A DNA stretch of 64,000 nt, taken from assembly GCA_024305405.1 (NCBI GenBank), contig JAKNDB010000098.1:1391501-1455500 (forward strand). Direction: 5' to 3'. The notes beneath the pieces are model-generated. The model saw only the letters and a program-made list of their open reading frames with translations. It searched no databases and was not told the origin of the DNA. Below, piece after piece: positions 30,955-60,300 of the stretch; position 1 is the first letter of the stretch; every line of letters begins with the position of its first letter. The stretch is from Dirofilaria immitis (Eukaryota; Nematoda; Chromadorea; Rhabditida; Onchocercidae). A program made the position numbers and the translations under genes.

Positions 30955-31183
30955 TACGTATGAACACACATATACATACATACATATATACGCACACACA
31001 TACATACACATATACACATATATATATACATTATACATAGAAAAATACATATTCACACATGCTCACGCATATATACATACACATAACACACACATACACA
31101 CTCATATATATGCATATATACATCATATGTAGACGTACATACATACATATATGCATACATATATACATACATACATACATACA

Positions 31184-31216
<33 letters not shown>

Positions 31217-31460
31217 GCATACGTACGTACATACATACGTACGTAGATACATATATACATACATACATAAATACATGTATACATACATACATACACGTAT
31301 ACATATATACATACGCATACACATATATATACATACATCGTATTCACATACACACAGATATATATATATACGCTCAGACACACATGCACACTGATCTACA
31401 CACACACACACACACCACTGGTCTACACACACACACACACACACAGAGCGTGTACACGTA
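30955..31460. repeat. Large compound microsatellite (ATAC, TATACA, AC)
   Basis: About 500 bp of CATA/TACA repeats, including an uninterrupted run of ATAC units at about 31165–31215, then two AC tracts at about 31395–31445. It gives long Y/H/I/C/V open frames on both strands, which are artefacts of the repeat. Confidence 0.97.
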
Positions 31461-35902: not shown

Positions 35903-36464
35903 TCACAGTGATGGTTTTAATAATTCATGTGCATATTTTCAAAAACTTTTGGTCTTTCGATGGATGTAAAAATATATCTGCCAAGCACAGAATATTTAGG
36001 GGGCTTTTGTTATTGAATCATCGAAGCTTAATGACAATCTCGAGACATTCAGTGATATTAAGATATTGTTAGGAGAAAAAAATTTAATCAAAAGATGGGT
36101 TTTACTGTAAAATCTTACAGTTTATTTAAGAAATTCTGAATATAGAGACAAGTTTGCAGAATTTTCTGAACAAACGACTAGTTTTGTATAAATCACAAAA
36201 GCAAAGAAATTGTTTCATACATCCAACTTCTTTATTCTTTACTTACCTAAGAAATTAGACCGGTGATTATGTATCTGAAGTCTGATCATATATTTTTTCT
36301 TTTCTAGATCTCTTCAAAAAATCTTTCGGAAAAATTTTAGTGGAATGCATTTTCTGTAGATATCAGTAATTAGCAGTTGAATTCTTTATTTTATTTCAGA
36401 TTTCAAGTTTAAAGTTTGATATTAAGATTTATATTTTGAAAAAAAAAAGGAAGTCTTTGAGGGA
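35903..36464. other. Convergent intergenic spacer
   Basis: 3' flanks of the Tudor-like gene (plus) and the ECI2-like gene (minus). No exon or repeat is seen. Confidence 0.5.
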
Positions 36465-40651: not shown

Positions 40652-43600
40652 TCATGGTAAACAAATGACAATTTCAGCAAAGTTTTCCCTTTGCTTGACT
40701 TTAACTCTTCGCTCCGCCAACAGCTCTATAATTGTTGTGAGTTAGTAAATAAAAAAATGCAAAGGAAAACTTTCGATCACTAATATTTTTATCAAAAATC
40801 AATTTATGAAAAAATAAAAGTTGAAATAAAGTTACAATATTATTTCGGAAATGATTCCATTAATCATTTAATATCATTCATAAAATTTTACAGTTTTGCT
40901 AAACCTGTAAGTCAGGAAAAAGATAAAACAAAGCATAAGAGAAAAAACATACGCAGCAAATTCGTAAAGCTTTAGCAGCAAACACTGCAGAACGACCGTG
41001 AATTAATTCCGAAAAGCATACTGTTGAGCCCTTGTGAGAATCGAGAAATTCAGTTATCAATCTGAAAAACACTTAAATTTATATTTATTAAATATAATTT
41101 TGAGAATAGGAAAGTTTTCCTAGCTTCATTAACAGAATAGATGAACTCGCAATTAAGTATAAAATGGTACTGACTAGTTAACAAATTCGAGCAATTTCTG
41201 TATGGAACAATAGCTATGACAAAAGGGATGTCAAGAGAAATAATATGAGGAGCGAATGTATGAATGATTCCTAAATTAATGTATTAATAATCAAAAGTAC
41301 AATAAAAGAAGTACCTAAAAAGATCATCAGCCTTTTGTGCCTGATAATATACTGGAATGGAACTATCGCCTGTTTCCACTGTACTTTCTACTCTACTAAC
41401 TTTCAACTGAAACGGATCCTGCATCATGGACATCTTCGGGATTTCTTTCTGAGAAACATCTTCCCGCATTCCATACTGCGGATATCCCTCATCTATAATA
41501 AAATAAAACTAATTTGCTTTTTTAAAAAATTTATAGGTATTAAATTTAAAATTTTAAATTATAATAATAAAAATTGTAGCATAACATAAATAAGTAATCA
41601 TAGACATGATTTATTCAAATTACGAAAAAATATACCAATAAGAACATTTTCAGTGCTACTTTCCAGTCTCGTTCCACGTAGTTCAGATTCTGTAAAATTA
41701 TGAAGTCAAAAACATGATCACCTTATTTTAACTTGTGACATTACAAATTATGATTTTAATCAAAATTTTGCTGTACTTACCAACCGCTAAGTTTGAAAAT
41801 AAGTCCGTGACTCGAGCTTTTCTGTTGACAAAATCAAGCTGTCTTCCACGCGCTGCAAATTAAAAATGCTATTTAACTGCAAACTTTATAGATGGAATAG
41901 TTAAAATGATTTTTTCTTTTTTACATATTTGCATTCTTTTTTTGAATAAAAATTTAAATTTTAATTGTTAAAAAAATCTAGTTATACAATTAAGCTTTTC
42001 TCTCTCAAGATAGTTCGTCCTAAAAAAAATCACTTTTCTAGTATTTTAATAGTTTATCAGTAATTGCCACTAACTTCAGTAACACGTCGTAATGCAAGAA
42101 TAGCAACGGATTGATGGTGTCGAATGTGATAAAATGTTTATTTCGGAAACTGCAAGTATGTCTAGAAGGAATCAGTGAGGACTGGTAAAGGAACATTTTT
42201 TAAGTTAGGATTTTCAAAATCCTAAGAAAAATGGATTGACTGTATTATCATGGCAATTATAAATAAGAGAGCGTCTGATATTCAATTATCAAAAGATATA
42301 TCAAGAATAATTGAGCCAATCCAAGAAAATTAATAATTAACAGATAAAATTTTATTTAAATTTTTATATTTGATCTAATTATTTTAGAATTATATAAGAA
42401 TTAATAAGTATATAATGTGCCTTAGATATAAGGTTAGCAAAAGTATGAGTATTTAATAAAATATTGACATGAAGAGCTTGCTTGCGGAGAGAAACAGGGT
42501 AGTAAAGTTATTGTTTATAGAGGTAATTTTATTTTGGTTCATATATCTATAAAAAGTGCTAAAGGAAGGCGGCCCTGGCATGCAAATTCCTGTAATGAAA
42601 ATGTGTTTGTTGAATTTTCTGGGATTTTTGTTGAAGAAGTAATTGCAACGATGATAGAGCTACCACGAGCACCACTTATTGCTGATAAATTAGCGCAACA
42701 TGCAGAGTTTTTAGTTTTGGCACTAATGATTTAACGCAAACAACCATGGCCTTTCAAGAGATGATTCAGTAAATTTTCTTGATTCTTACAAGGAAAACAA
42801 TATCTTCGGGAATGATTCATTCGGCATGTTTTTGTTCAAGATGAGTTAAAATTCTTATAGCTTGAACGTTGTGGTCAAATTCATATTTTTCACTATCAAG
42901 ATTCAAATCTCGAACTGATTTTTTAGAGCATTTTCACCTGTGTGACCAAATGGAGGATGACCAAGGTCATGTGCAAGTGCTATACATTCAGTAATGTCTT
43001 CGTCTAAACCCAGCCTACGTGCAATAGATCTTGCAATTTGTGCGACTTCAAGACTAATAAACACCTAAAGATTAATAATTAACACTATCTACGTTATCTT
43101 TATAAACTTTGTAGAAACCGTCAAAAAATATACTTGACCTACTTGCTCGTAGAATTACCTTCTGGTCAGTAGAGCTAATCTTAACTGCTATCTGATCAAA
43201 GATCACTGATTCCATCTGGCTTGCAATGGTTCTTTTCCAAATTAAATCATATAATCTGAATTGTTCTAGTGTTAAATAGTCGCATTTTTTTGTTTTTCAT
43301 TACTTTCAAATTCTTACCGCTTGTGATGATCCCTTCTCAGCAGTTCTTTCAAAAATAAAAGCCACAGACATTTTCATTTTGTCATCAAATTGTCGACTAT
43401 CGCTAGAGGCAATTGGCAATCCTGCATCTGATCTAAGCTGTGATGAAGGATCTGCGGTACGCTGAAATAATCTGACACTGGAATGATTCAAGTGACAATA
43501 CATGGAATCAATAAATAGAAATATGAAATTTAATCTTGAATAGAATAATATTTCAAGAAAATTTTGCAATTTTCAGCATATAATGACCGAAAAAGCACGT

Positions 43601-46600
43601 TTTTCAAAATTTCATTAATTAAGATATCAAAATTTTGTCAATTTCTAAAAAATCATGGAAATCGAATGAGAAAAGATTTCACGGAAGTTCTGGCAAATTA
43701 ATATAATCTGACAGGAAGCGCTACATTTATTCTACCAAAAATTAGTTATCGAAATAACGCTGGTAATTAAAATCGGATTTAGATGCGTAAGGAAAATGTT
43801 GAAATTATAAGCAGTGCTACATACTGTGCTACCATAAGCTGCTGTAGAAGTAGTATTTCGTCGTTCATATTCGATATCCTCCATCACTGGTGTAATCTGT
43901 CGTTCCAGATTTTGCAGTTTACTTTTCAAGGATGCATGAGACATAGATTCAGTTGACATCTCTCTTTTGCCGATAAGTTTTGCAACATTCGCATTGGTGG
44001 TGCTTGCATTGGTTCTAATTGCATTGCTTCTTCATATTGAAGTGGTGGTTCATCATATTCCGGTGCTGTGATCCAAGCATTCAAGTTTGATACAGGATTT
44101 TTCGAGAATTCTGCAACGTATACCCATAAGTTGAAAACTAAACGTTTCTGAAGATTCCCATCTTTCTAGCAATGAATCGTGAAACAATAAGTTTTGGCTT
44201 CCCTTACATTTTAATATTTTATGAATATATTTTAAGAAACTATTCGTACCAACAGAATGAATGATCAGTAACGGAATTACCAATTAAAAATAGTATATGT
44301 GAAATTAGAGAAATTCTTATCGAACTAAAACAACAAAAAAGAATTCAAATTTCACCACGCAATGTCACTGGATGAACATTAAATAAATCTTGAACTGTTA
44401 CTATCCCACTTTTTGGTATTTGAGAAATCATTTCATCGCGTGTATATAATAAGTCATGACTGCTATCGATCTGAGCTTGAAGCTGTGCCTGAAACTTGAA
44501 ATAAATTTCTCAATGTTAGTGAAAAACAATAACAAACATTGATAACAAATAAAGTACGAGACTTACCTTATTAAACATAGTAACTTCATCAATTATTATC
44601 CCATGTTTGCGACGTTTTTCTTTGGAATTTCCATTTGCGACTCATGCACGTCACTCAATTCGATTATCTGAAAAAATTAACTGAACGCCATCGGGTTTTG
44701 AATTCTGGAATGAAATTTTGAAGAACTTCGTTAAGCAATCTTGTTGTTATAAAAAGCAAACAGTATCGTATTTCAAAATGTGTAACATAAGTTTTTTTTG
44801 TTGCCCACAATAGTGAGTAGGGAAATCAAAATTCAAAAATTTATGCACCTATAAATTAGATTATTTAACAAAAAATATAATCATGATAAAAATTTACTGA
44901 TAAGCATGTCGGATGCTTAATCTCCGACTCCTGCAAAGTTTCATCAGATCCTAAATCGTACTGTCTCTCCTTACGTATCTCGCTTTCATCACTTACTTCC
45001 ATCATTTCAAATATCTGCTCCAGCTTTAAAATCATAAAAATAATAATTCTGGAATACAAATAAATTCTTTTTCTTCAAAATCTTTTATCGAAAGTAAATA
45101 GCGAAAAGAACGTCTTTCTACCAAAATTTTGTCCTTTTTTCTAGCAACAAATTATTGTTAATAGTTCATTGAGTTAATGGTATATAGAATTTTTATTTAC
45201 ATGTGTTGTTTTATTAGCAGTTGTATTAGTCGCCAACGCTTCAGGAACTACATTCATAATGAATTCTTTGGATCCATTTGTGCTTCCTGATTTACTTTCA
45301 ATAACATGTTCGATATCATCGTTCAAAAGAGCTTCCCTGATGAATAAATTGAGATCAGCCATTAGAAAAAAGCTTACCGAATTATCATATTGTTTACTAA
45401 CTGATAATGAGAGGACAATTACATACTGGAAAAGCTCTTTTTTATCTAGAAAAAGTAAAAAAGTAAATTGATAGCTCAATTCTTATTCATTCTATGATAT
45501 CTCAATCTCTAAATATTCTTGAGCTTAAAAATGGTTGAAGTTTTTAGTAAATTAATGTATTACATTTGTTGAGCTTCGGCTGCCGTCAGTGGTCCAAAAT
45601 CATCATTAAACATAGTGTCAATTTCTGGAAGTGGTATATCTTCACGTAATGTGATTGCACTGTAATCCAGCACAACCTTTAGATGTTCATTTTCCTTTAA
45701 AATACAAAGTTATTTAAAATAAAATGAAAAAGAAATTTAAGCATTATCAGAGATTAAATAAACTTAATCAAAGATAGTAAAAATGATTACTTTTCGGTAT
45801 GATATCATAAAAATCACCAGAGCTGATTGGAATGATATTCACAACGTAGAGAAGAAAGTTAACTTGAAACTCTTAATAGTTTTTAATCAATAGTTTTTAA
45901 TAAAAAAATCCAAAAATGAATAAAATTTTTACGATAGTCTCAAACGAAGAATTCAGCATAAGTGTATCGTTTAGTTTTGATACGCGTTTCTTCCGATCTT
46001 TTTACCTTTAATAAGGGATCTGTAACAGTTGGAAGCTTACTGCTGCATCATATAGAAGAAAACGAGAAAAATAACCCAAACTAAATCCTGTACTTCAATA
46101 AAAATAACAAATTTAGTGATATTATCATAATTCTCAAATGTAAGAATTGTATAAAAATACAAAAAAGAACTGACCAAATCACTTAATCTTATTTCATTAA
46201 AATATAAGAATAAAAATATGGATTTGATTAAAAATGAAATTTGAAAGAAAAGAAAAAAATACTCGTTTTCTTTTTCATACTGATAACGGCGTATGATCGG
46301 AATAAATGTTTCCATATCTCCTAAACCATAAATATTTCAAAACTTCTATATCCTTTTTATCCAAAAAGAATATTTCATAGAATTGAAAAACTTACTGCAC
46401 AGAATGTCACCTTGTTTTTGTACGATTAGTGCAACACCATAGGCAAGTTGTGCTAGTAAATAAGAGAAAACTTAATTTCGCCCGGGTTACCGTTCGGGAT
46501 TTTCCCGATTAGAAGCTCGCTGAAAAATCAGATATTTATTGCTAATTCACAAAATCACTTCAAATTTTATAATCAAGGATGATATAGAGATAAAATTATG

Positions 46601-47373
46601 CATTGTTATGAACTTGAAATGTTTCTAAATGTAAAAACACCAATGAAGTTTGAACAAAAAAATTATTTACATTATTTACACTACACAAAGGAGTGACAAA
46701 TACTTATCAGATGACTGATAAAAAAAAAAGATAAAAAATTGCGAACTAACCAAGCTCTTTGCACATTTACCTCTAAAATAATCTTTCGCGATGGTCTCCA
46801 TTTCTCATCGAAAACAATTCGCCTAAAAACATAAAAGAATTATTAATCTAAAATATTTTTGAAGAATGGAAAGAATTTATAAATCCATAAAACTCTACTA
46901 ATAGCTGCTATAGATTAATCTTATAAAGAAATTATTATTTAGGCATTCTTTCGGAGGAAAGTTAACAATTCTATAAACTTATACTTAATGATATAATCAT
47001 GTAATCGTTATCAGATTCCAATTGTTATTATCAATTTTCATAGCATATCATTGTTCCTGCCAACTAGTAATTGTTTGTATTTCAAAATTAAGCTAGTCAA
47101 GCATTATCTGATTGATTGATTGATTAATTAAAACAGTCAGGTAATAAATGATCGGTTGAACGATTATTGCAAATTAATTTTAGTTGTAATTATAAATCAT
47201 ATAATTTACAAATAAAAATTATCTTCCGATATGATTATATATAAATCAAAAATATGATGATATTATAATATCTTATAATATTCAAAAGAAACATAATCTT
47301 TTAAGTAAGTAACTAACCAAATGATAGCCAAAGGTTCATTCCTTCTCATCAATAGAGAAGGTATGAAGAACAT
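40652..47373 (-). CDS. rec-8: REC8-type meiotic cohesin kleisin
   Basis: Seventeen exons: 47318–47373, 46751–46822, 46396–46519, 46263–46320, 46006–46039, 45564–45694, 45201–45336, 44898–45023, 44567–44667, 44356–44488, 43825–44110, 43318–43461, 41781–41852, 41636–41689, 41315–41492, 40953–41061, 40652–40725, about 630 residues. Kleisins close the SMC1–SMC3 cohesin ring; REC8 types hold sister chromatids together in meiosis. The N-terminal domain shows [19 protein letters not shown], then [12 protein letters not shown] and [20 protein letters not shown]. The C-terminal winged helix is [15 protein letters not shown]…[13 protein letters not shown]. The middle is acidic and variable, as usual. 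Single-base gaps occur at 46458–46460, 44615–44619 and ~43959, with phase clashes at exons 12/13 and 16/17. COH-3/4-type kleisins are the main alternative name. Confidence 0.8.
42630..42829 (+). pseudogene. ppdK: Wolbachia-type pyruvate phosphate dikinase fragment (nuclear insertion)
   Basis: The plus strand encodes [22 protein letters not shown], then after a 1-base gap [14 protein letters not shown], then after another gap [19 protein letters not shown]. This is the bacterial PPDK active-site region (MIELPRA…[11 protein letters not shown]). The left end, between about 42540 and 42630, is unclear. With two frame breaks and both ends missing it cannot be functional. It lies inside a REC8-like intron, in the opposite orientation to that gene. 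Confidence 0.85.
42822..43060 (-). pseudogene. dgt: Wolbachia-type dGTP triphosphohydrolase fragment (nuclear insertion)
   Basis: The minus strand encodes [17 protein letters not shown], then [20 protein letters not shown], the HD-domain core of bacterial dGTPase-like proteins (HD in AHDLGH). After a frame break near 42915 it continues [19 protein letters not shown] then THLEQKHAE. Both ends are missing. It shares about 9 bases (TTCGGCATG) with the end of the ppdK fragment, as expected of an end-joined junction. Confidence 0.87.
43084..43292 (-). pseudogene. topA: Wolbachia-type DNA topoisomerase I fragment (nuclear insertion)
   Basis: An uninterrupted minus-strand frame of about 70 codons reads [34 protein letters not shown] and [15 protein letters not shown], a typical internal piece of bacterial TopA ([13 protein letters not shown]…FDGF.KVY). 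It has no start or end of its own. It begins only ~25 bases downstream of the 5' splice site of REC8-like exon 12 (donor at 43316–43317). With the ppdK and dgt pieces it makes a mosaic of about 0.7–0.8 kb. Confidence 0.88.
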
Positions 47374-47519
47374 TTTGAATGCTTGAAATATTTGATAGTT
47401 TAATTCGCAAAATGTTCTTTCATAGATTGCTAATAATAATAGTGCCTAAAAATTATTTTTGTAACACGTGAAATCCTAAATAAGGTGAAAGAGAATGAAA
47501 TTTTACATTATTGTACAAT

Positions 47520-47935
47520 ATAGACGTGAAGATACGTACTTGCTGAAACGCTGAGAATTATGATAAAAATTCGACGATATGATGAAGCATGAAGTCATTC
47601 ACGAATACATCGCAAATATGTAGTGAAATTATATGGTAAATAATTAACGAATAAGTGAGAACGCGAAGAAGCAGCACGATATACGTTTCATAGAATGCAT
47701 CAAAAGACGTAGGGAAATCTCATGGTAGATTAGAAAGTACGTAAACAAGTTGATTACAAATACGTTTACGAATATGTCAAAGACATAAAGAATCAATACC
47801 GTAAATAGCTTGCGAACACAATGAAGACATAAAAAAGCGACACGACAAATAATTTACGAATAAGTCGACGACATGAAGAAATCGGACTTGTAAATAGTTA
47901 CGAATACGCCACATGTCGTATTTTTTTACATCCAA
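47520..47935. repeat. Degenerate ~55–60 bp tandem repeat
   Basis: Seven or so loose units contain ATTTACGAATA.GTC, GACATGAAGAA and GCGACACGATA. It is GC-richer than its surroundings and just upstream of the REC8-like gene. Confidence 0.5.
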
Positions 47936-48354
47936 AATAATGTTCACAAATCATCATATCATCATAAATCATCGTAACAATTGAAGCAATATAGCAATAC
48001 TAGATTATATAATTAAACTTGATTAAATAGTTACTTGTTTGGGTTACGGTAACTATTTAGAAATGAAATGATAAGTTAAAGATAGGAATAGAATTCGATG
48101 CATAAACATTAATCAATGAAATGAAACTATCATAAGATAAGAACGAATTGATAACAAGTCAAAATAAAGCAAAAGATTAGTTAGTTCGAGAACAGTTTGA
48201 AATGAAAACAAAAAATAGTTTTCGAGATGTTGAACTTTATCTCTCATTTCATCCTTTCCCAAATTAATATAATAGTATATTTGAGTGAAATAATTATAAA
48301 ATCAAAAAATAGTATAATTATAATAAATATATTTGTTTTATAAAATTTATTTAA

Positions 48355-48640
48355 AAAGAAAAAAATTATATTATTCTATAAATTATGTATATTTTAAATA
48401 ATATAAATTGTCGAGAATCTGAAGAATATATTATTCTATATGTATATATTTTATATAATATAAATTGCCGAGAATTTAAAAATATATTATTCCATATGTA
48501 TATATTTTATATAATATAAATTGTCGAGAATTTGAAGAATATATTATTCTATATGTATATATTTTATATAATATAAATTGCCGAGAATTTAAAAATATAT
48601 TATTCCATATGTATATATTTTATATAATATAAATTGTCAG
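48355..48640. repeat. ~55–60 bp tandem array, five copies
   Basis: AATATATTATTCTATATG, then TATATATTTTATATAATATA, then AATTG(T/C)CGAGAAT recurs five times at about 48360, 48425, 48480, 48535 and 48595. Copies 2 and 4, and 3 and 5, match each other best, implying duplication of a two-unit block. Confidence 0.9.
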
Positions 48641-49119
48641 AATTTAAAGAAAAAATTATCAAAATTATTAATTAATTTTGGTAATTTCCTAATAAATTTA
48701 AATAAATTGAATTGAGAATTTTGAATTTATTTCGAGATTTTAAACAAGAAAAAATTGAATAAGCAATTTTAAGGAAAATATTTTACTATTTTGATAAAAA
48801 AAAAAAAGTAACATATAATTAAAAAGCACAATGAATGATATCAATTGATTAATTCTATCATCGTTAGCTTTTCCATTACCCTATTGCTAATGTAATTTTC
48901 TAGAATAATCGAGAATTTCCATTTTCATTATCATCATACGTGCACATTTCAATCATAGCCAATCAAATATCTCGACCGTAATCATCCGGACCATTTACAG
49001 TAATTAGCGAGATAAGAAGGAAGCGGAAGGATATCAATAGTATAAAATGTAACTCATTTAAGAACAAAAAAAAGTCATATAATTAGGAGTCAACTTTTTT
49101 TCAATAATTCTATTGATGC

Positions 49120-49350
49120 CAGGTGCGGTACTGTATCAAAGACTCAAATTACCTGTCGTACTGTATTAAAAGGTAATGCTTCCAATTAAAAACTCAGATC
49201 ACCTGATCGTTATGTATTAAAAGCTTAGATCACCTTTTATGTTTTAATTTAAAGCATTACCTGTCGTACCATATTGATAGCCACAGACTATTCGTTGCAT
49301 GTATTAAAAACATAAGTTATCAGTCGTACTATAGAAAGCATGGATTATCA
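49120..49350. repeat. Degenerate ~45–50 bp tandem repeat
   Basis: Units contain ACCTGTCGTACTGTATTAAAA followed by GCATAGATTATC-like sequence, near 49125, 49152, 49200, 49258, 49300 and 49330. Confidence 0.55.
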
Positions 49351-49982
49351 TTGTAAGAAAGTGATTTTACCAAAAAAAAAAAAAATAATGTTCAATCATG
49401 ATGTAGTTAGATACGATAAAAGTATTAACTTGAAGATTGATTTATTTTGAAACTTAATAAAAATGATGAGCTAAAAGTTATCATAGCATATAAATTTTGC
49501 GTATATAATTAAAAGCCCACATTGAAGCTGAGCATGAAATAGTAGGAATGGGAAAGATGTTGACGTAAAATTTTCCTTAATTTTTATAATGTTGAAAGTG
49601 GGAGTTCCGTGGTTACGTGGTTACGTTTAACACTTAAAGATGACTTCTTCAATCTGGCTAATTCATCGAATTAATCATTGAAATGACCTGAAAATAATTA
49701 TTTGAAATGATTTCAAATCCGTTTGAGTAGTAGGTTAAACATAATCTTCATTATGACTTTATAAGACTTCTTTGACGTAACAATTCATACGTAAGAATGA
49801 TCTCTTTTATCATGCTGATCTAAAAAAACAAATCACTGAAATCAAATAATCTATATTGATAATAATATTTTTGAATAAATGTATCAAATATACATGATTT
49901 AAGCCGATAGTATTTCGTTTCATCAATTAAATTAGTCGATATGTACTTTCGGATATCATTTAGTTGTGAATTATGAAGCAAA

Positions 49983-50077
49983 TGCCGATTCACGGACGCC
50001 TAAAATGGCACTGTGATATGACTTTAATCAGCAATTAGCAACATATCACAGCTCAATTTCAGGCGATCGGAAATCCA
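49983..50077 (+). ncRNA. mir-2: Candidate miR-2 family microRNA precursor
   Basis: A ~95-nt imperfect hairpin. The 5' arm ends CTGTGATATG (50011–50020) and the 3' arm begins CATATCACAG (50042–50051), a perfect 10-bp stem with a 21-nt loop. Pairing continues outward through TAAA/ATTT and TCCGC/AGGCG-type blocks with only small symmetric internal loops, about 22 of 29 positions paired. The 3' arm starts TATCACAG at 50044, giving seed ATCACAG, the miR-2/miR-13/miR-43 family seed, on the arm where that family keeps its mature strand. The predicted mature RNA is about 50044–50066. It lies in intergenic DNA, about 1.3 kb upstream of HEATR1. Confidence 0.72.
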
Positions 50078-50604
50078 GCATCCATGGGTTGACTAATCAA
50101 TCAGCGATATAAAATATTAGCAGAAGGAATAATGAAATGCAATTTTCTGACGTTGTTGATTCATAGATCACAAGAATTCTTGAAAGTGAAGAACAATAAA
50201 TTGCATGGATTCTTGAAGAGACAAATATGAGAGATACAGGAAAAGCTCTTCCACATAGATTCATCTCATCCATTTAAATAATAATCAATCATCCATTCAT
50301 TGAATTTCTCCCTCCGCTCTAATGATTCACATGGGATAATATTTATTGAACGTGCAATATTGAAATAAAAATTTTCCACTTACAAGGAATTCAATGATTG
50401 ACACGTATTCTAATAAAATTAAACGTAATAATTTTGATGAGAAAGATAAGGAAAGAGAAAGAGAGAAAAAGAAAGAGAAAAGGTGAAATTAAGAGAGATG
50501 AAATGAAAAGGCATGAATTATATTTTAAAAAAATATGCGATATATTATTTCAATCATTTATTTTAATCATATTACATGAACAAAGAATTTTCATACGTAT
50601 ACGG

Positions 50605-50690
50605 TAATAGCAATTATTTCGGAATGAATGATCGAGTCAAGATACTGTAATTATTTCGGAATGAATAACCGAGTCAAGATACTGTAATGA
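50605..50690. repeat. Short tandem duplication (~38 bp)
   Basis: TTATTTCGGAATGAATGA, CGAGTCAAGATACTGTAA is present twice (50616–50653, 50654–50689) with two or three changes. Confidence 0.85.
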
Positions 50691-51356
50691 TAAATAGATC
50701 GGAATGTTCTGATAATGATTAGATAAGCTAAATAGGGAGATATCATGATCAAACATCTTACGATCTAAAATAATTAAATGGAAAATATTTCTAAGAATAA
50801 ATTCTCCTAGTAATAATTCATCCGAATAGATTCATTTTTATAAAATACTTTTATTGTTGCTAGAAATTATTTATTGTTTTTCGACGTCGCAGAGAATTTC
50901 ATTTTAAAGATTGCATTAACAGAATTCATAAATATTAGTCCCGAGAAATTTCCCGACAACTCATTGGCAATATAATTATCATAGAGATGCTGAAAAGAAA
51001 TTAGTGATAATTGATGGGAAGACGAATTTCACATTAACTTCGTTGAAGTGACATAGAAATACGAAAGGTTTGATAATTAATTAATTCGAGATGCTGATCA
51101 GGATTGACTTTAACTTGTGTGTAATTAATTAGTCTAAAGTGATTAATGAGTCTAAAGTAATCTTAGTTAGTCCTGACATTTCTTTTATTAATTTTTCCAA
51201 ACACTAAGTAATAATTAAAAGGCATTCGAATACTTCATAAAATTTGCGACTTGAAATGGAATATGAAAAGCGAGAATTTTATGCTTTATAGAAACCTGAA
51301 ATGGAATATACCTAGCTTTGAAACTAGTCAATTTCAATTTTAAGTAATCTTCTCGA

Positions 51357-51359
51357 TAG
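51357..51359 (+). promoter_or_regulatory. Candidate SL trans-splice acceptor of HEATR1
   Basis: TTCTCGATAG ends one base before the ATG at 51361. Such leader-proximal acceptors are common in nematodes. There is no other AG between it and the ATG. Confidence 0.35.
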
Positions 51360-51360
51360 G

Positions 51361-54300
51361 ATGACATCGTTGGAGAAACAGCTGAACAAGCTACGAACGG
51401 CAGTTAGTGGACAACTTGGAGTGGAACGACCACATGTATCATTACTTTTTGATAAGAAAGATGCAGGCTCATTATATGTGGAAAATGCGTTACAAATCGG
51501 TCAGATATTTTTCATATTTCTTTTTTCGACAATCAATTTAAAATTGATTGTCGAAATTTGATTATTTCTGTTTTCTATATGAGGACCATTTTTTCATTGA
51601 GCACATAATGTTTTCAAATTACAGATCCATGTAAATAGCATCTCAATTTTTATAGTAAGCATAATCTAGTTTTTTTTTTTAAATTCCATTCATTTCTATT
51701 TTATCATTCACAATTCATCTGCATTTAATTATTTATTCTTATGTCAAAAATGTTCAATTATTCCCGTTTAGATTATCCACTAATAAAGATATCACTGGTA
51801 ACTTAGATAGTATGATATTAATTGACTAATATGAAGAAGCATATTATCAGTTTTTGTGGAACTTCGCAGTTATGTTACTTTTTAGCTTTATCCAGTTATT
51901 ATCATGGAATGGAGTAGTCTAATAATATGGCATTTCTTTGCAGTCATTGTCCTATATAATCAATTTTTTAAAATATTCTCCTAAAATTTAACTTTTTTGA
52001 CTGTAAATAATTACAGGGCGTGCTGGATTAGCGGGATTACGAAAAGTTGATCCAAAATTGCCATTGAAGAAGAAGACCTGTTTGATGATGCAGCAGTCAA
52101 TGTGCAACGTGCACTTTTGACAAAGGAAGAGAATGCTGTACTTGATAAGAAACTTGAACGTGTAATCATACAGCTTTCGGCTTACTTGCATCATCTCTCA
52201 GCTAAGCAAATATTGGAATGGTTGATATTTCAATTTCATGTAAGTTTTATATCCGGTTCCTGTTTTTTTGGTGCCTCACTTTCTAAGCTATATCCTATTT
52301 TCAAATTAAAAATTTTGGAAGAGCTTTTCTTTAAATTACTGACGTCATTAAAAGAGCAGTAAGTATGATAAAAAGACAATGAGCAGAAGTTGATGGATAC
52401 TGCATATCGTTGGAAAATTTTCAAATAATGAAAGTATCTGATTGATAAAAAATCATTTCACTTATGGGCTACAAATGAAGGTGCTTGCAAAATATTTTAT
52501 CCTCATAAGAACGAGGTGTTAGATTCAAATTGTCTCGAATAATATTAGGTAAAATTAAAAATAATTATTATTTGGGAAAGATTTGCAGTTTACTATAATT
52601 CAGTTGTGAATTTTTGGTTTGGTAATATTTTATAAAAAGTCATAAGGGCTTCCCATAAATTTAAACAAAAATTTTATTTGATAGCAATATTTAGGATGAT
52701 GATTCAACAAATATTGGCGATGAATCTTTACGACTGGCTCACATCTCATCTTTACACATTTTACTAGGAAAAATTTACTTTAAATTTTAGGTGCAAAGTT
52801 TCAATGCCGAAATATTATTTATTGCTTTTTTACCATATCATAATTCAAATATATTTGGACGATTACTATCCATACTCGATTTAAAAGGATTAGAATATGA
52901 TTGGATCAAAGAATATGCTAGTTTAGAAGCACCTATTCCAATGACAAAATTGGTTGTAATTTGTACTTCAAGAAATCATTCTTTGCTTACCCTTATACAC
53001 AATCATATCGAACGTGTTAGAGAGGCTAGTTTTAATTTTTTTTTCCTAATTATTTTAATTTGTACAACTCGGTTTACTGCGTAATTAGTTTAACCATGGC
53101 AGCCTTAAATAATTTCGAACATGAATAAAACGAATAAAAGACAAATTATTTAAAAAGATATATTGAAGAGATATGTTTCAATTTGGTGGTCTTAATAACA
53201 TGAAACAGAAGAGGTACAATTCCTTAATTGATTGTTATAATTAAATGATTCTCTATAATTTGTTTTGATAGTCATCTGTAGCTGGCTTTCACTTTGAGTT
53301 CTTCTTTTCTTCGAATCCTTTTTATGACAGATTGCGCGGACTAATTAATAAGAATTTTGAAAGTTGAATAAAATTTCTCAGAGTTCCATGTTTTCGAAGA
53401 CCATAAGTTTAAAGATGTTTAATAACTGATCTGTGATATTTGTACTTTTTTAGCTGTTTAGTGCAAAGTTTGTGGAAACTAAATTACCACACTTATTCAC
53501 GTTTTATGCTTCAATTTCTGTACATCTTTTGGCGAAATCCGATGTAACGGATGCTTTAGTTTCAAGAATGTTGCCTTTCCTGGCCAGAGGCTTGGTGTAA
53601 GTTCATGTTTTGATTTCTTTTTGTTGAGGAAGTTTTAATATGTTCCATGGTAAGAGAATTATTGTTTGAATAACAATTCAGCAATTGTAAGTTTTTCATT
53701 ATCACGTGACTCTGAGAAATTATTATTATATAATAGTTTGTTTTTTTTCGATCGCATTCATATTTCTGAAGAAATTGACGTTTTTAGATCAGATTTACTC
53801 TCTCTGCGATTGGCATGCCTTGTTGTAATAAGCCAGCTTTGCATAAATGTGAAGTTAGTGTCCAACAAGCTTGACTCAATAATTAAGATTATTTTACTGA
53901 AAATGGACAATTATACGATGAAAGAATCAATTGACACTTTGGTAGTTGTTTACCAGCGTCAAGAAATAACTAGTTTCCCACTAAAGTAAATTTCATTATC
54001 TTTTCACTGTTTCGATAATATTGCAATTGAGATAGCTTAAGTTTTTATTTAGCACGGCAGTCTGAAATAGCTATTAAAGATATTCCAGTTACTCATTAAT
54101 CTCTATTACCTATCAGAACCAATCAGTTTTTTTACGAATTCCAGTGGAATATTCTGATTTAAGTGATTTTGGATATATTTTCGATTGTTCCTAAATGTTT
54201 TGTAGCTCCTTTTTTTGTAAATATCTGTGAAATTTTTGATCCTTTTTTTGAAATAATTTTTCCATCTTCAGATTAAAGACCGCTTTAAAACTTGCTAGAA

Positions 54301-57300
54301 AAGATGAATATTTGCATATTTCGGAATATGTAAAATCTTTATTTTCCATTACGGACATGCGAAAATTTATTGCCGCATTTGCACAAACTTTTATTCCTTT
54401 GCTGTCAAAATGTGGTAAGTTCTCGACTAACACTTAGTTATTTTTTTGTTTGTTATTGGTCTTAAATAATTGTTCAAGCTTGCATTTGCATAAATATATA
54501 TTTCCCAGGATTACTGGAATAAAAGTCATGAAATTTTTTTTTGGTGTTTAGGAAATGATATAAGTTCTAAAAAATTTCATTGTTTATTATTTTCCATAGA
54601 TGAGGAAGAAAAGTTGATGAAATTATGCAATTTCTGCATCAATTGCTTGGATTTAACCTTACTGAATGATCGTATATCCGAAACAATCTTGAGTTTGGTG
54701 CTAGAAGTACTATCAGAAATGAATGATGCTGGAAAAATCCCAGATATTTTTTACAAACACATACGTGGTTTGGTATTTAGGTTTGTTTTTAGTAGATTTT
54801 AAAAAATATAACATTTGTTATAGATGACTACTGAAATATGATTTTCACCTTTTCTTTTCATCGCTTCATTTTTACTCTACAGATATTAATTTATTGAAAT
54901 TAAATGTAGATTTTGGAATATACACGTCAACAGATCATTGTCATTTGTCAAAAATGATGTACTTTGAGATTTTAGTTAATGAATCAGTGTCTGACTTTAG
55001 TTAATGAATGATTTGGTAATGCAATGAATTTAGATATTATGTCCATCTGCATAGTCCTGTAAAAAGCTTGATGCGGTTTCAGCCTGTCTTCCAAATATCT
55101 TAGATAATAGCAGTGCAATATAACAAATTAAGTAAGTAATATATAACAGATAAGTATACAGATAAGTAGCACTGCAATATAATAAAATATATCCTTTTCT
55201 AATAGTGTGATTTTAGATTTCCTAATGCTTTCGCAACGGTCAGCTCGGAGTGGAAAGTGCGCGATGAGAGTATTTATAATATATTACTGAAAGCTTGTAA
55301 ATTTGAGCAGTACGAGGTATTACTGTTTATTTCATTAACATTACAATTTCTAGTTTTCCTTATTTTTATCGCAATGTTTCATTATCTTCATTGCTGTGAA
55401 ATTATAACTATCCAATTAATTTATGTGAAGGAGGATTCACTTTTATATATTCATCACCTCGAAACTTGATGTGCAAGGTTGTAACTTTTATGTTATTTAG
55501 ATTGAAACCTTCGAGGTTACAGTGGAAAAAAAAAGCGGCGTCGACGTCATAGCAGCACTAAAAGTAGTGCAGGTGAGGAACAAAGTCAGTCTTCACCCAG
55601 TGTTTCCAAGCCTACATTGAAAAGGAAGCGACCGGAAGAAATTAAGGTAATAATCTGAATATTCATATTTATTTTGAATGATATGAAACAAACGATTATA
55701 ATTTATCATGAATTAGATATATTTAATGATTTTCTGAATGAGTTCTAAAACATTATTTTAATGTTAGTGATTTTCAGCAAGAACAACTGAATTCTGTTCG
55801 CGAACCACCCAAAATCGTATTCAAGGGTGATCCATTAGAAAAACTGATTGATATAATTAAAGCTGAAGATTGGCCGCTTGCAGAAGCTGGTCTTGAAGTA
55901 GGTCTTTTTCTCTTTTGTAGTTTATGCCATTTCCGAATAATAACATCATTCTAATCAGTATGATTGATCAAGGAGATGTTATTTAGTAAAATTTTTCGAC
56001 AAAATTGAAAGGTGAAGGAAAGATGCTTTTGTTTTCAATAAGTGAATCATGGAATCTATTTCTCCATTTCAGACTGTCATGTCTCTAATAAACCATTCTC
56101 TGTGTTGATTTTCATTTGAAACTTTAGCACTTCGTTCATCAATATTTGTGTATGACATACTTTAAATGCTAAGCTCATTATGTTTAAAAATATCTAATAC
56201 CTAATGTACGGTGGAAGTTATCAGTGACAAAATGATATAATGCACTTCGATGAAAGATGAAAAGCATGACCGTAAAAATAATAGACTTTTAGATTGTAAC
56301 GTTAAATTTTCATGGAAATACATGTTAATTTTTGGTACGAATCTTTTTGTATTTAATATTTTGCTACAATGCAGGTTTTATTTTAGAAATTGTGTACGCC
56401 TTCTTATTTAAAAAACCGAATAGCATCTGATTTTGAAATGTTTTCTCACAAATGGTTGCTATTGCCCTCGCAGAAGGAGCGCATCTAAAAACTGCAATAA
56501 AAAACACTTTGTCACAAGTAGGTTTAATTTTGTTGGCTTACTATTTACAATTCAAAATTAAAAAGTAAGCTATTCAGGTTTGCGAGAATTAGGAATGTTT
56601 TCTGGGATTTTCACTTAATTTGCGAAAATCCCATAGCGATTCTTTTTGTCATATAATTGTTTTTCTTTATTTTTTATAGAAGAAAAGTGATTTTCCGTTT
56701 TCACTAGTTCTTAATTTCTTTGCAGTTACCGGTGGATGTCAATTTTGCACTATCTTTATTAAAGCCTTATACGGAAACGAAGAGTGCCAGACGAATTCGT
56801 GATATATGCCATTGGTCCTGCTTTAAATATGAAGATATCGAGAAATTTAAAACTAGGCGTCTCTTTGTACTAGAATTATTGCTTATCAATCGTACTCTTC
56901 AAGCGTCAGCTAAACTATTTCATCAGCTCTACGAAATTTTAAAGGAGTGAGTCGGATTTTCGAAATGTAAATTCGGATTTTTGAAATATAAGCTTTTTTT
57001 TTTTGAAAATACTCAGAACACTTCATCCAGTTATAAATAACGATTATCGTTCTCTAGGGATCATTTTTTTTTATCATTTTTGTTGTCATTTATTTAACGC
57101 GCAATAATCTCATTTTATCTCGGCTTCATTTTGGAAAGTTGGGATAGCTTTTGGAATAAATACTAAATATATATTTATAAGTCAAAGAGGATTATGGATC
57201 AAAAATGGTGGAAATACTACCGATAGATTTTTCTGTTAAGAAGAAAAATTGTATTTGTAGGGCTATGCAGAAAGCTGATGAAGATAATCAGTACTTGGAG

Positions 57301-60300
57301 CAGTTGATTATCAATTTCATCGTATGCTTGATCAAAAACCCTCGTAAGGCGATTTCATTTTTTATTGTTTGTGAATATTCCGACATATAACAAGGATATG
57401 GGAAATAATTTGAAATAAATACTTTAACCTCAGTATGAATTTGTACTGTGACCATAAGAGTAGTGTGTCGGATAATTTGGCATTTCCGCATATTCTTCAA
57501 TTATTTTATTTGCATTCAATTTCGTGATATAATCATTTTTTTTAGCTTTATCTTGATAAGTTATTCTACTCAGTATTTTATATCATTTCGGCTATGTCTT
57601 GTAGTTTTAGGCGGTTATAAAGTTTTGGCTGACGATTTACAACTGGATACAATTGTTGATATTGTTCGCCATACTCAAAATCATCGGATTCTTCGAGATT
57701 GTTTGCAGTTGCTTACGTGTGCTGTAACTGTTTCACCAGTAGGCTTTAGAATTTTTAAGATTTATTGAAACTCTCAGAAATTGAAAATTTCAGATATTAA
57801 TATTAGAGAGTAAATTATCAAGAAATATCCGGTTAATTATATCCATTTTGCAGAAAAAAGTATTGGCACATTTGATGTCTGTTTACACGTTTATGGGTGA
57901 TGGAGTGCTAAAGAAAGATAACGATTTAACATTGAGTGTAATTGAGGAAACATTGAATGTATTGTTTTCGACTGTTATGAGTGAAAAGGTTGTACCAATG
58001 AATTCATTCAATTGAGATTCAAATATTTTTTCAGTACTTTTTATAAGTTTTTATGTTAGTTTCAAAATTTGCAGAAGTGAATGATTTTATATTTATCTAT
58101 CAAAGTATTTCGAAAACTTCAAGAATTTAATCTCTTCATTTCGGAATTGTTTTCAGGACCAATCATTTCACGAACAGCTGGTGACAACTTCTCGGTTATT
58201 TGCAGCATCAGTTACTGACATTCCAGCGCATCGGCGTGATAGAATTTTACGTGCCGTAGCTCGATCGGCTGGAGCACAATATATTTGGGCGGTGATCGCT
58301 ATTCTTTTGAACGGTATTGCTTAAACTGGACTAAAAAGCCAGAAGGTTCGTTACAGCATATGTCTTGTATCATAAGAGAGGATATTCCCTTATTTCTTGA
58401 ATTTTAGGTTTTTTCCTTTCCAAAATTTGTTCTTACGAAACATTTCGTGAATTATCATTTATAAGTGCTGAAAATTTATTGTTTGAAGAATAACAAATAT
58501 CTGAAGTAAAAAATAAGTGCCACATACACATCTTTTAAGTTTTGTGGTATTCAATTCAACTCTCTTAATATTGAATGTGCAATTTTTCCATCATTTAGCA
58601 GATTATAATGATTAGCCTTCAGGTCGAACGTCTGCTGAATTATATGAGGAAATGTCAACGATTATGGTTTCGGAATATGATGCTATAGAACAGCTTTCTT
58701 GCACAGCAAATATGATAAAATATATTATCAAATTGGGAGGTGATTTCTCAGTTTGCGAAAATCCAAATGCAGCCAATAGTCAGAAGGAGAAATTTTTGTC
58801 GAAAATATTTGATCGTACAAAACATTCGGTGCAAAAATTGCGACACTATCGTTTTGCTATGTTGGGATGGATTGCTAGACTTCTGGAAAGTGACGAATTT
58901 AAAGAAAAAGTAATGCATTTCTCATTGGATATTAATTTTTTGAACAAAAATATTTGAGCCATTTATATATAAACATTAAAAACTTTGGCAGTTATCGAAA
59001 TAAACTAATTGAATTCATCGGAATTCTTTATCCAATTAAAATATTTAAAAATTTCTGGTTTTTCATTTTCAGTTAGTAGCCGTTGATGATAATTCATATG
59101 ATAGGCTGCTTGAAACTGCTAAAATTCTTTTGTTTTGCTCTGTTGAGCTTGATGATTTCGTCACTACGGAAACATCAGATGCCGAGAAGCATAATGTGCA
59201 AGGAAATTCAGACCAACAAACTGCAAACAATTATAAATATTGGATTGCCGTTTCATCGCGTGCGGATATTGTCATTGAAAAGGTTCATCCAGACATTTTG
59301 AGTTTCAGTTGTGTGAATAAATGAAAATATTCGACTGTCAGTATCATGGAATTTTAAAGTTTTTAAAAGACGTTTAGATAAAACGATTCATTTGCTTTAG
59401 TGGTCAAAATCTTGTTTTAGTTCCAAAATTTGTTGCCAAGTAATGTTTGCGGACATATTGTGGTGGATGTTCTGGAACAAACTGCAACTATGCCAAAATT
59501 AAGAGATCGAGCACTGCAATTTTTGAATACCAAATTGCTGCAAGATGGTTCATATATATGTACAGTGAAAATAGATCACTTGAATAGCTTGATTACGAAA
59601 TTCAACTCTTGGCTACGAACGATTGGAAAGGAATTTGATGTAGGTTTATAGGATTTTATGGTTTGCAGCAAGCATTCTTGTTAATGGCTGATCACGGATA
59701 TCATCGCTTTCGATTCTCTGTTATAATTATGATAACTATGTAAAAAAAAGAAGTAAATTGTGAGTCGGTTTCGTAATTATGATACTGATTTTATTTTAGG
59801 TTGATCTGTGCCAGAAAGCAGCTCATACATTGAAACTAGTAGCACGTAATATGACATCATCAACAGGTTTCGTCTTATTGTCGGAGACGCTAGAATTAAC
59901 TGTGGAGTTGGTAAGTTCTACTTTGTACTAACGTTTATCAAAAATTTTGTTAATGAATTTATATTTTGGGATATTGGAAGATGGCCTCCATAGTTCGAGT
60001 GAAAAATGGCCCAAGTCGAAAATTTTATGTGCAATAGAATTAAATTGTGATGCCATTTTTTTAAAACCTTAATATATTTTGTTATCTTATTGTCATTTTT
60101 CTGCTCCCAATATATATTTTTAGCTGACTAATCGGAGTACGTATGATGAAGCAGTAACGGGTAGCTTACTTTTGTTAGCTGGTGAATTAATGCGCTTTCA
60201 ACGCGTAAAAATTCTATTCTATATTCAAATGCTCTGACGGATGTCTGTACTGAAATTCTCTTTGCGGTTCTTGAAACGCAAGCTATATTCGGAACTAGTA

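What the first reader, a model, noticed from the sequence alone, without database searches (positions are those of the whole stretch)
49983..50077. miR-2 family hairpin in the REC8–HEATR1 intergenic region
The hairpin geometry and the seed ATCACAG on the 3' arm together match the miR-2 family, including which arm is mature. No miR-71, its frequent partner, is seen nearby, so it looks like a stand-alone locus.
Basis: partly seen in the sequence, partly recalled or inferred. Interest (0 to 1): 0.75.

Follow-up and report, generated by a model that had tools for sequence, protein, structure and literature searches.

The report
miR-2-type microRNA gene in filarial worm
A filarial worm genome carries, between two ordinary genes, a hairpin that is very probably a microRNA gene of the old miR-2 family, most likely read from the opposite DNA strand to the one first proposed.

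Summary
The hairpin is real and not chance. In 300 dinucleotide shuffles of the 64-kb window, none of 408 TATCACAG sites formed such a hairpin; in the real window 2 of 4 sites do, both being this one locus read on its two strands. Of 138 distinct TATCACAG sites folded from the same genome, three loci stand out: this one, a canonical mir-2 about 3.3 kb from mir-71, and a locus carrying the exact top miR-2 sequence reported for Dirofilaria immitis (PMC3598945).

The stem is nearly palindromic, so ATCACAG lies on the 3' arm whichever strand is read. The minus strand fits better: -44.6 versus -33.6 kcal/mol, 20 versus 17 of 22 mature bases paired, Rfam mir-2 35.3 versus 28.1 bits. Best reading: mature UAUCACAGUGCCAUUUUAGGCG, 50018 down to 49997 (-), not the + strand at 50044.

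The neighbours are a REC8-type kleisin (-) and HEATR1 (+); no cluster partner was found. This is a probable new, unremarkable member of a known family, perhaps already catalogued, since miRBase could not be searched. Neither strand reaches Rfam's cut-off, and no small-RNA data were available, so expression is inferred.

The parts
49980..50083 (-). primary microRNA stem-loop (inferred transcribed strand)
   Evidence: fold of the minus strand -44.6 kcal/mol, 41 pairs of which 7 G-U, 14 pairs below the 22-mer
49997..50018 (-). predicted mature 3p guide UAUCACAGUGCCAUUUUAGGCG, seed AUCACAG at 50017-50011
   Evidence: 20 of 22 bases paired to the 5' arm; RF00047 match 49992-50068 (-), 35.3 bits. 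End positions are inferred from the family register; 21-23 nt possible
50042..50063 (-). predicted star strand CCUGAAAUUGAGCUGUGAUAUG
   Evidence: placed by 2-nt 3' overhangs on the minus-strand fold; inference
50019..50041 (-). terminal loop region between the two arms
   Evidence: minus-strand fold, centroid equal to the minimum
   Evidence: 17 of 22 paired; RF00047 28.1 bits on +; weaker reading, not excluded
43309..47373 (-). neighbour: REC8-type kleisin gene; the start codon at 47373 and exons down to about 43309 were read by eye against homologues, the gene continues further to the left
   Evidence: filarial homologues, O. ochengi 69% over 79% of the query; N-terminus [19 protein letters not shown] at 47373 resembling P0011
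51361..58954 (+). neighbour: HEATR1/UTP10 gene, start codon at 51361; the right end was not determined and probably lies further on
   Evidence: exon 52051-52359 matches human HEATR1 (7mq8, E 8.2e-05) and fungal Utp10; weak PF23243 HEAT_HEATR1 match, 13.2 bits under a cut-off of 27, for 58616-58954; start codon

Best explanation
The element is a microRNA gene of the miR-2 seed family, transcribed from the minus strand in the divergent intergenic stretch between a REC8-type kleisin gene (-) and HEATR1 (+) of a filarial nematode. Shown here by sequence and computation: a hairpin found once in the genome, strongly folding, with the AUCACAG seed at nt 2-8 of the 3' arm product, best on the minus strand. 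Inferred from general microRNA biology: transcription as an independent unit, Drosha cut at the base of the approximately 22-bp duplex, Dicer cut at the loop, loading of the 3' arm (U first, A-U end, against a G-C end for the star) into Argonaute, and repression of mRNAs that carry CUGUGAU-type sites in their 3' UTRs. The most likely guide is UAUCACAGUGCCAUUUUAGGCG (50018 down to 49997).
For: Minus strand -44.6 kcal/mol, z -4.93; 77-nt core z -6.64 on minus, -5.18 on plus. RF00047 matches full length on both strands, minus better. 0 of 408 shuffled sites pass the hairpin filter. Three loci in a sample of 138 genomic TATCACAG sites fold at -29 kcal/mol or lower; the other two are a canonical mir-2 linked to mir-71 and the exact top D. 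immitis miR-2. The DNA search reports one copy in the 86.7-Mb genome, which speaks against a repeat or transposon end. Strand control by Rfam score: true strand higher in 4 of 4 both-strand controls (mir-71 69.3/30.5, mir-2a 63.8/36.4, mir-228 40.3/22.5, mir-279 47.5/34.9). Strand control by folding energy: true strand lower in 5 of 7.
Against: RF00047 score 35.3 is under the gathering score 45.5. The strand gap is 7.2 bits, less than the 12.6-38.8 bits of the four controls. Folding energy pointed to the wrong strand in 2 of 7 controls (mir-228, mir-279, by 0.9-4.4 kcal/mol), though here the gap is 6.7-9.1 in favour of minus. The + strand mature is marginally closer to this genome's miR-2a (15 versus 14 of 22) and miR-2b (13 versus 12 of 22), and one weak Rfam family, mir-5, scored the plus strand higher (19.4 versus 17.8 bits). 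No small-RNA reads and no orthologous DNA from another filaria could be examined.
Confidence: 0.72

Rival explanations
1. One reading: the microRNA is on the + strand, mature UAUCACAGCUCAAUUUCAGGCG from 50044, perhaps from the 5' leader of a HEATR1-side transcript.
For: The + strand folds well (z -3.15; 77-nt core z -5.18) and matches RF00047 at 28.1 bits. Its mature has 15 of 22 identities to this genome's miR-2a against 14 for the minus mature. mir-228 and mir-279 show that folding energy can point the wrong way.
Against: Only 17 of 22 mature bases paired, with four in a row unpaired (nt 9-12); 11 kcal/mol weaker; lower RF00047 score, a measure that was right in 4 of 4 controls.
Confidence: 0.12
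2. Bidirectional locus: both strands are transcribed and processed, giving two different microRNAs that share the miR-2 seed but differ after nt 8.
For: Both strands give significant hairpins with the seed in the same 3p register. Winter et al. mention bi-directional microRNAs, often very similar in sequence, and two such intronic pairs in Brugia (PMC3282659, passages read). The locus lies between divergent genes, so both strands may be transcribed.
Against: The mirror-image seed follows from the near-palindromic stem: the canonical mir-2 at C24 also scores 36.4 bits on its antisense strand. The + strand is clearly the weaker.
Confidence: 0.1
3. A chance or decayed inverted repeat, or a retired miR-2 copy, that makes no microRNA.
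For: Rfam score below the gathering cut-off on both strands; no expression data.
Against: 0 of 408 shuffled sites; E 2.1e-05 with RF00047 over 261 bases; pairing extends into a 14-pair basal stem. microRNAs sequenced in D. immitis also fail gathering scores in this genome: the exact D. immitis miR-2 at 23.6 bits, miR-279 47.5 of 56, miR-228 40.3 of 51.3 with the mir-263 model.
Confidence: 0.06

Closest known systems
mir-2 family (Rfam RF00047; cel-miR-2, bma-miR-2a)
   Same: Seed AUCACAG at nt 2-8 of a 3p product, U first, CAUAUCACAG at the loop-side junction, similar length and loop position; full-length RF00047 alignment.
   Different: 35.3 bits against 63.8 for the canonical mir-2 of the same genome; different letters after the seed (14 of 22 identities in all); not linked to mir-71, which lies on contig C24.
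miR-2b of filariae (D. immitis TATCACAGGCCTGATGCAGCGAG; lsi-miR-2b-5p)
   Same: Same seed and arm; the locus is on the same contig C26, about 1.19 Mb away. I call it miR-2b because its 5' arm resembles lsi-miR-2b-5p (PMC6903752, passage; compared by eye).
   Different: 12 of 22 identities; that locus has a mir-36-like hairpin beside it, this one has none that I could find.
B. malayi miR-2e or another unclustered bma-miR-2
   Same: B. malayi has 11 miR-2 members (9 sequences, 2a to 2i, plus 2 duplicates), about half of them clustered (PMC4019659 section 11). Loci resembling 2a, 2b and the mir-279/mir-250 cluster of 2c are found elsewhere in this genome, which leaves 2e as a candidate by elimination; the search for 2d and 2f-2i was not complete.
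   Different: Letters of bma-miR-2e could not be obtained (supplements and miRBase not available), so orthology is untested.
Bi-directional microRNAs of Brugia (Winter et al. 2012)
   Same: An antisense hairpin with a very similar product would be expected here if both strands are expressed.
   Different: No reads; antisense similarity is a by-product of the palindromic stem.

Membership tests
miR-2 family microRNA | seed AUCACAG at nt 2-8, U at nt 1 | tested here: met
   50018-50011 on minus; also 50044-50051 on plus
miR-2 family microRNA | seed carried by the 3' arm of a single hairpin of about 70 nt | tested here: met
   minus; plus
miR-2 family microRNA | Rfam RF00047 gathering score of 45.5 bits (curator's cut-off, not a biological definition) | tested here: not met
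   35.3 (-) and 28.1 (+) bits. The exact D. immitis miR-2 locus of this genome scores only 23.6 (E 1.44), in a search in which 8 of 14 bacterial and archaeal control genomes also gave some match at E up to 10, so the cut-off does not delimit filarial members
microRNA gene | stable fold beyond composition, at least 16 of 22 mature bases paired (threshold recalled) | tested here: met
   z -4.93 and -6.64, 20 of 22 paired on minus
microRNA gene | expression as a 20-24-nt RNA with fixed 5' end and star with 2-nt 3' overhang | not testable with these tools
   no small-RNA reads held
microRNA gene | conservation of the hairpin in related species | not testable with these tools
   the tool states that G000 has no relatives here
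mir-71/mir-2 cluster | mir-71 within a few kb on the same strand | tested here: not met
   mir-71 is at C24:32898 (-), about 3.3 kb from the canonical mir-2; no miR-71 seed word in the window
miR-2/miR-36 cluster of filariae | miR-36 hairpin nearby | tested here: not met
   TCACCGG occurs once in the window, at 36266 (-), without a hairpin; apart from this locus the best hairpin window within 5 kb is -25.0 kcal/mol. Rfam alone is not a safe test: it missed the mir-36-like and mir-2b hairpins of L034 at E 0.5
bidirectional microRNA locus | reads from both strands | not testable with these tools
   structure permits it; no reads

The most novel reading that the evidence does not exclude
A bidirectional miR-2 locus: one quasi-palindromic hairpin between two divergent genes makes two distinct microRNAs, one per strand, that share the AUCACAG seed but differ in their 3' halves. 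A mirror-image seed would then be a built-in property of miR-2-type stems (canonical mir-2 of this genome also scores 36.4 bits antisense).
Probability: 0.1. Interest if true: 0.5.

Novelty: new member of a known kind. Interest (0 to 1): 0.25.

Why it matters
It adds a probable stand-alone paralogue to the miR-2 family of filarial worms, described as the largest microRNA family in B. malayi (PMC4019659 section 11). It also gives a concrete warning: miR-2-type stems can be close to palindromic, so seed and arm alone do not tell the strand, and primers designed for the + strand mature would probably miss the real one.

Tried and rejected
Transposon or MITE end: not supported, the DNA search reports a single match in the genome. 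Coding function: open frames over the hairpin are short (59 residues at most) and nothing marks them as exons. Mitochondrial COX1 as species marker: only short or stop-broken fragments. C. elegans-type miR-36 word at up to 3 mismatches: 4 hits against 3 for the reversed control, uninformative. My first motif check for cluster partners was weak: its miR-36 and miR-250 words do not match this genome's own mir-36-like and mir-250 hairpins, so one search repeated it with words taken from this genome.

Mature letters in print: 13 stretches taken from the two mature forms, in RNA or DNA letters, gave no paper on microRNAs (one search asked for 3 of 5 terms; one search listed two unrelated papers). 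Only main texts were searched; supplements and miRBase were not available. CTCCGCCC, recalled as an upstream motif of worm microRNAs: a one-mismatch copy lies at 50312, but 6 such copies occur in the window against 1.99 expected, so no weight is placed on it.

Papers: PMC4019659 (section 11 and passages), PMC3282659 (passages, outline with abstract, section 12), PMC4102413, PMC6903752 and PMC3598945 (passages only); all others search listings only. Among the unopened ones are all 13 papers (UAUCACAG) and 11 of the 12 (TATCACAG).

Limits of the site sample: the loci then held came from the first 30 of 192 CATATCACAG places, all 100 listed of 124 GTGAT-TATCACAG places (rest fetched) and the other genome searches, so it is enriched for hairpins; 23 of 138 sites passed a loose pairing filter. 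In one search only 60 of 27,756 candidates were scored.

Full report
Observation. The window holds an inverted repeat with arms 49987-50020 and 50042-50075, 76% complementary over 34 nt with 21 nt between. The + strand of 49970-50090 folds at -33.6 kcal/mol (z -3.15). The word CTGTGATATG occurs only twice in the window, once for each arm (0.11 expected).

Is it chance? The seed alone is not rare (8 against 5.25 expected). With a filter for TATCACAG, at least 17 of 22 bases paired to one upstream arm and at most -29 kcal/mol, 300 dinucleotide shuffles of the window gave 0 passes among 408 sites. The real window gave 2 passes among 4 sites, both from this locus. In a scan of 12,782 100-nt windows of both strands, the minus-strand hairpin at 49981 reaches -41.5 kcal/mol. 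Four windows fold lower, all at 31131-31221, inside the ATAC microsatellite.

The window's own genome. It is held as 86.7 Mb in 65 contigs; the window is C26:1391501-1455500. The DNA search reports the hairpin once. I folded 138 distinct TATCACAG sites from the loci fetched up to then. Three loci reach -29 kcal/mol or lower with at least 17 of 22 bases paired upstream. The first is C24:29526-29596 (-), the only locus over the RF00047 cut-off among the 60 of 27,756 candidates scored (63.8 bits), about 3.3 kb from mir-71 (69.3 bits). The second is C26:255137-255205 (+). It carries the exact 23-nt sequence that Table 1 of PMC3598945 gives as the top member of the D. immitis miR-2 family (TATCACAGGCCTGATGCAGCGAG; count 78,387, which I take as the family's; passage read). 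The third is this hairpin. A further cluster on C18 has mir-279 (exact D. immitis mature), mir-250 (76.5 bits) and another ATCACA hairpin; it resembles the Brugia mir-279/mir-250/mir-2c cluster described in PMC3282659 (passage).

Which strand? The stem is nearly palindromic, so both strands show the seed on the 3' arm. Minus against plus: fold of the 121-nt span -44.6 against -33.6 kcal/mol; 77-nt core z -6.64 against -5.18; 41 pairs with 7 G-U against 35 pairs with 2 G-U, and 20 against 17 of 22 mature bases paired; RF00047 35.3 against 28.1 bits.

I tested these measures on other microRNAs of the genome. Folding energy favours the true strand in 5 of 7 (mir-2a, mir-71, mir-2b, mir-36-like, let-7) and the wrong strand by 0.9-4.4 kcal/mol in mir-228 and mir-279; here the gap is 6.7-9.1 kcal/mol for minus. 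The orientation of the mir-36-like hairpin rests on its seed only, and the letters of miR-2a are recalled from C. elegans miR-2. The Rfam score favours the true strand in 4 of 4 loci where both strands hit the same family and the mature sequence fixes the orientation (mir-71, mir-2a, mir-228, mir-279). Left out of that count: let-7 (55.1 on the true strand, its antisense hit went to the clan-mate mir-3596 at 45.2), mir-250 (76.5/29.2) and a mir-10 match near let-7 (35.0/24.0), whose orientation I did not fix independently, and mir-2b, with only its true strand listed.

Against minus: the gap of 7.2 bits is smaller than in those four controls, the + strand mature is one base closer to each of this genome's miR-2a and miR-2b, and the weak mir-5 match scores plus higher (19.4 against 17.8). 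I put about 0.8 on minus, given that it is a microRNA.

The Rfam cut-off. Neither strand reaches 45.5 bits. That does not exclude membership here: the exact D. immitis miR-2 scores 23.6 in the same model, the exact miR-279 47.5 of 56 and miR-228 40.3 of 51.3 with the mir-263 model.

Surroundings. To the left is a REC8-type kleisin on minus: a joined exon query matched filarial Rad21/Rec8-type proteins (O. ochengi 69% over 79%; Loa loa 58%; C. johnstoni 54-66%; B. pahangi 77% over 34%; W. bancrofti 54%). Its start codon is at 47373. To the right is HEATR1/UTP10 on plus, start codon 51361; an exon matches human HEATR1 in the PDB. The predicted precursor (50063 to 49997) lies about 2.6 kb upstream of the REC8 start codon on the same strand and about 1.3 kb upstream of the HEATR1 start codon on the opposite strand.

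Cluster partners. None was found. In the window the words TGAAAGACA (miR-71), TCACAGCCAAC and TGACTAGAAC (this genome's mir-250 and mir-279) do not occur, TCACCGG occurs once at 36266 without a hairpin, and apart from this locus the best hairpin window starting within 45000-55000 is -25.0 kcal/mol. Within 44000-56000 the only Rfam matches up to E 0.5 are at this hairpin, but Rfam at that level also missed the mir-2b and mir-36-like hairpins of L034. A diverged partner is therefore unlikely but not excluded.

Mechanism. A minus-strand primary transcript would fold into the stem 50083-49980. Drosha and Dicer would release a duplex of 50063-50042 (star) and 50018-49997 (guide). The guide starts with U at an A-U end, favouring its loading, and would repress mRNAs with CUGUGAU-type sites. 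All steps after the fold are inferred from general microRNA biology; no expression data were available.

Novelty. The candidate is a new member of a known kind. B. malayi has 11 miR-2 members (PMC4019659 section 11). By elimination this could be the orthologue of miR-2e or another unclustered member, but those letters could not be obtained, and none of the queries for the mature sequence found it in the held main texts.

Noticed in passing
window 42820-43296 (-): Bacterial-looking fragments within the REC8 gene region: a DNA topoisomerase I piece (PF01131, E 9.8e-11), 83% identical to a Wolbachia endosymbiont of Litomosoides brasiliensis and 85% to a Rickettsiales MAG, beside a piece that looks like a dGTPase (my reading, untested). 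Likely an old Wolbachia-to-nucleus transfer in an intron (inference).
   Followed up: partly
window 48388-48659: Tandem array of a 56/113-bp AT-rich unit (91% and 96% matches) in the same intergenic stretch as the hairpin.
   Followed up: no
window 30972-31338: Long ATAC-type microsatellite, open in several frames; it outranks the hairpin in the folding scan.
   Followed up: no
L034 1541 and about 1712 (+) (G000:C26:255 kb): miR-2b hairpin identical in its mature part to D. immitis miR-2, with a mir-36-like hairpin about 170 nt downstream; on the same contig as the window, 1.19 Mb away.
   Followed up: partly
L230 899-977 and 1212 (+) (G000:C18:1.495 Mb): mir-250 (76.5 bits) and a further hairpin with GCATCACAGCACGATTCGGCC, downstream of mir-279: looks like the Brugia mir-279/mir-250/mir-2c cluster.
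   Followed up: partly
G000 C26, C58, C64: COX1-like fragments, 5 of 6 with internal stops, at several places: perhaps mitochondrial or Wolbachia-derived insertions.
   Followed up: no
method: Fold energy picks the wrong strand for mir-228 and mir-279, while the Rfam model score picked the right strand in all four both-strand controls counted; model score may be the safer strand test.
   Followed up: yes
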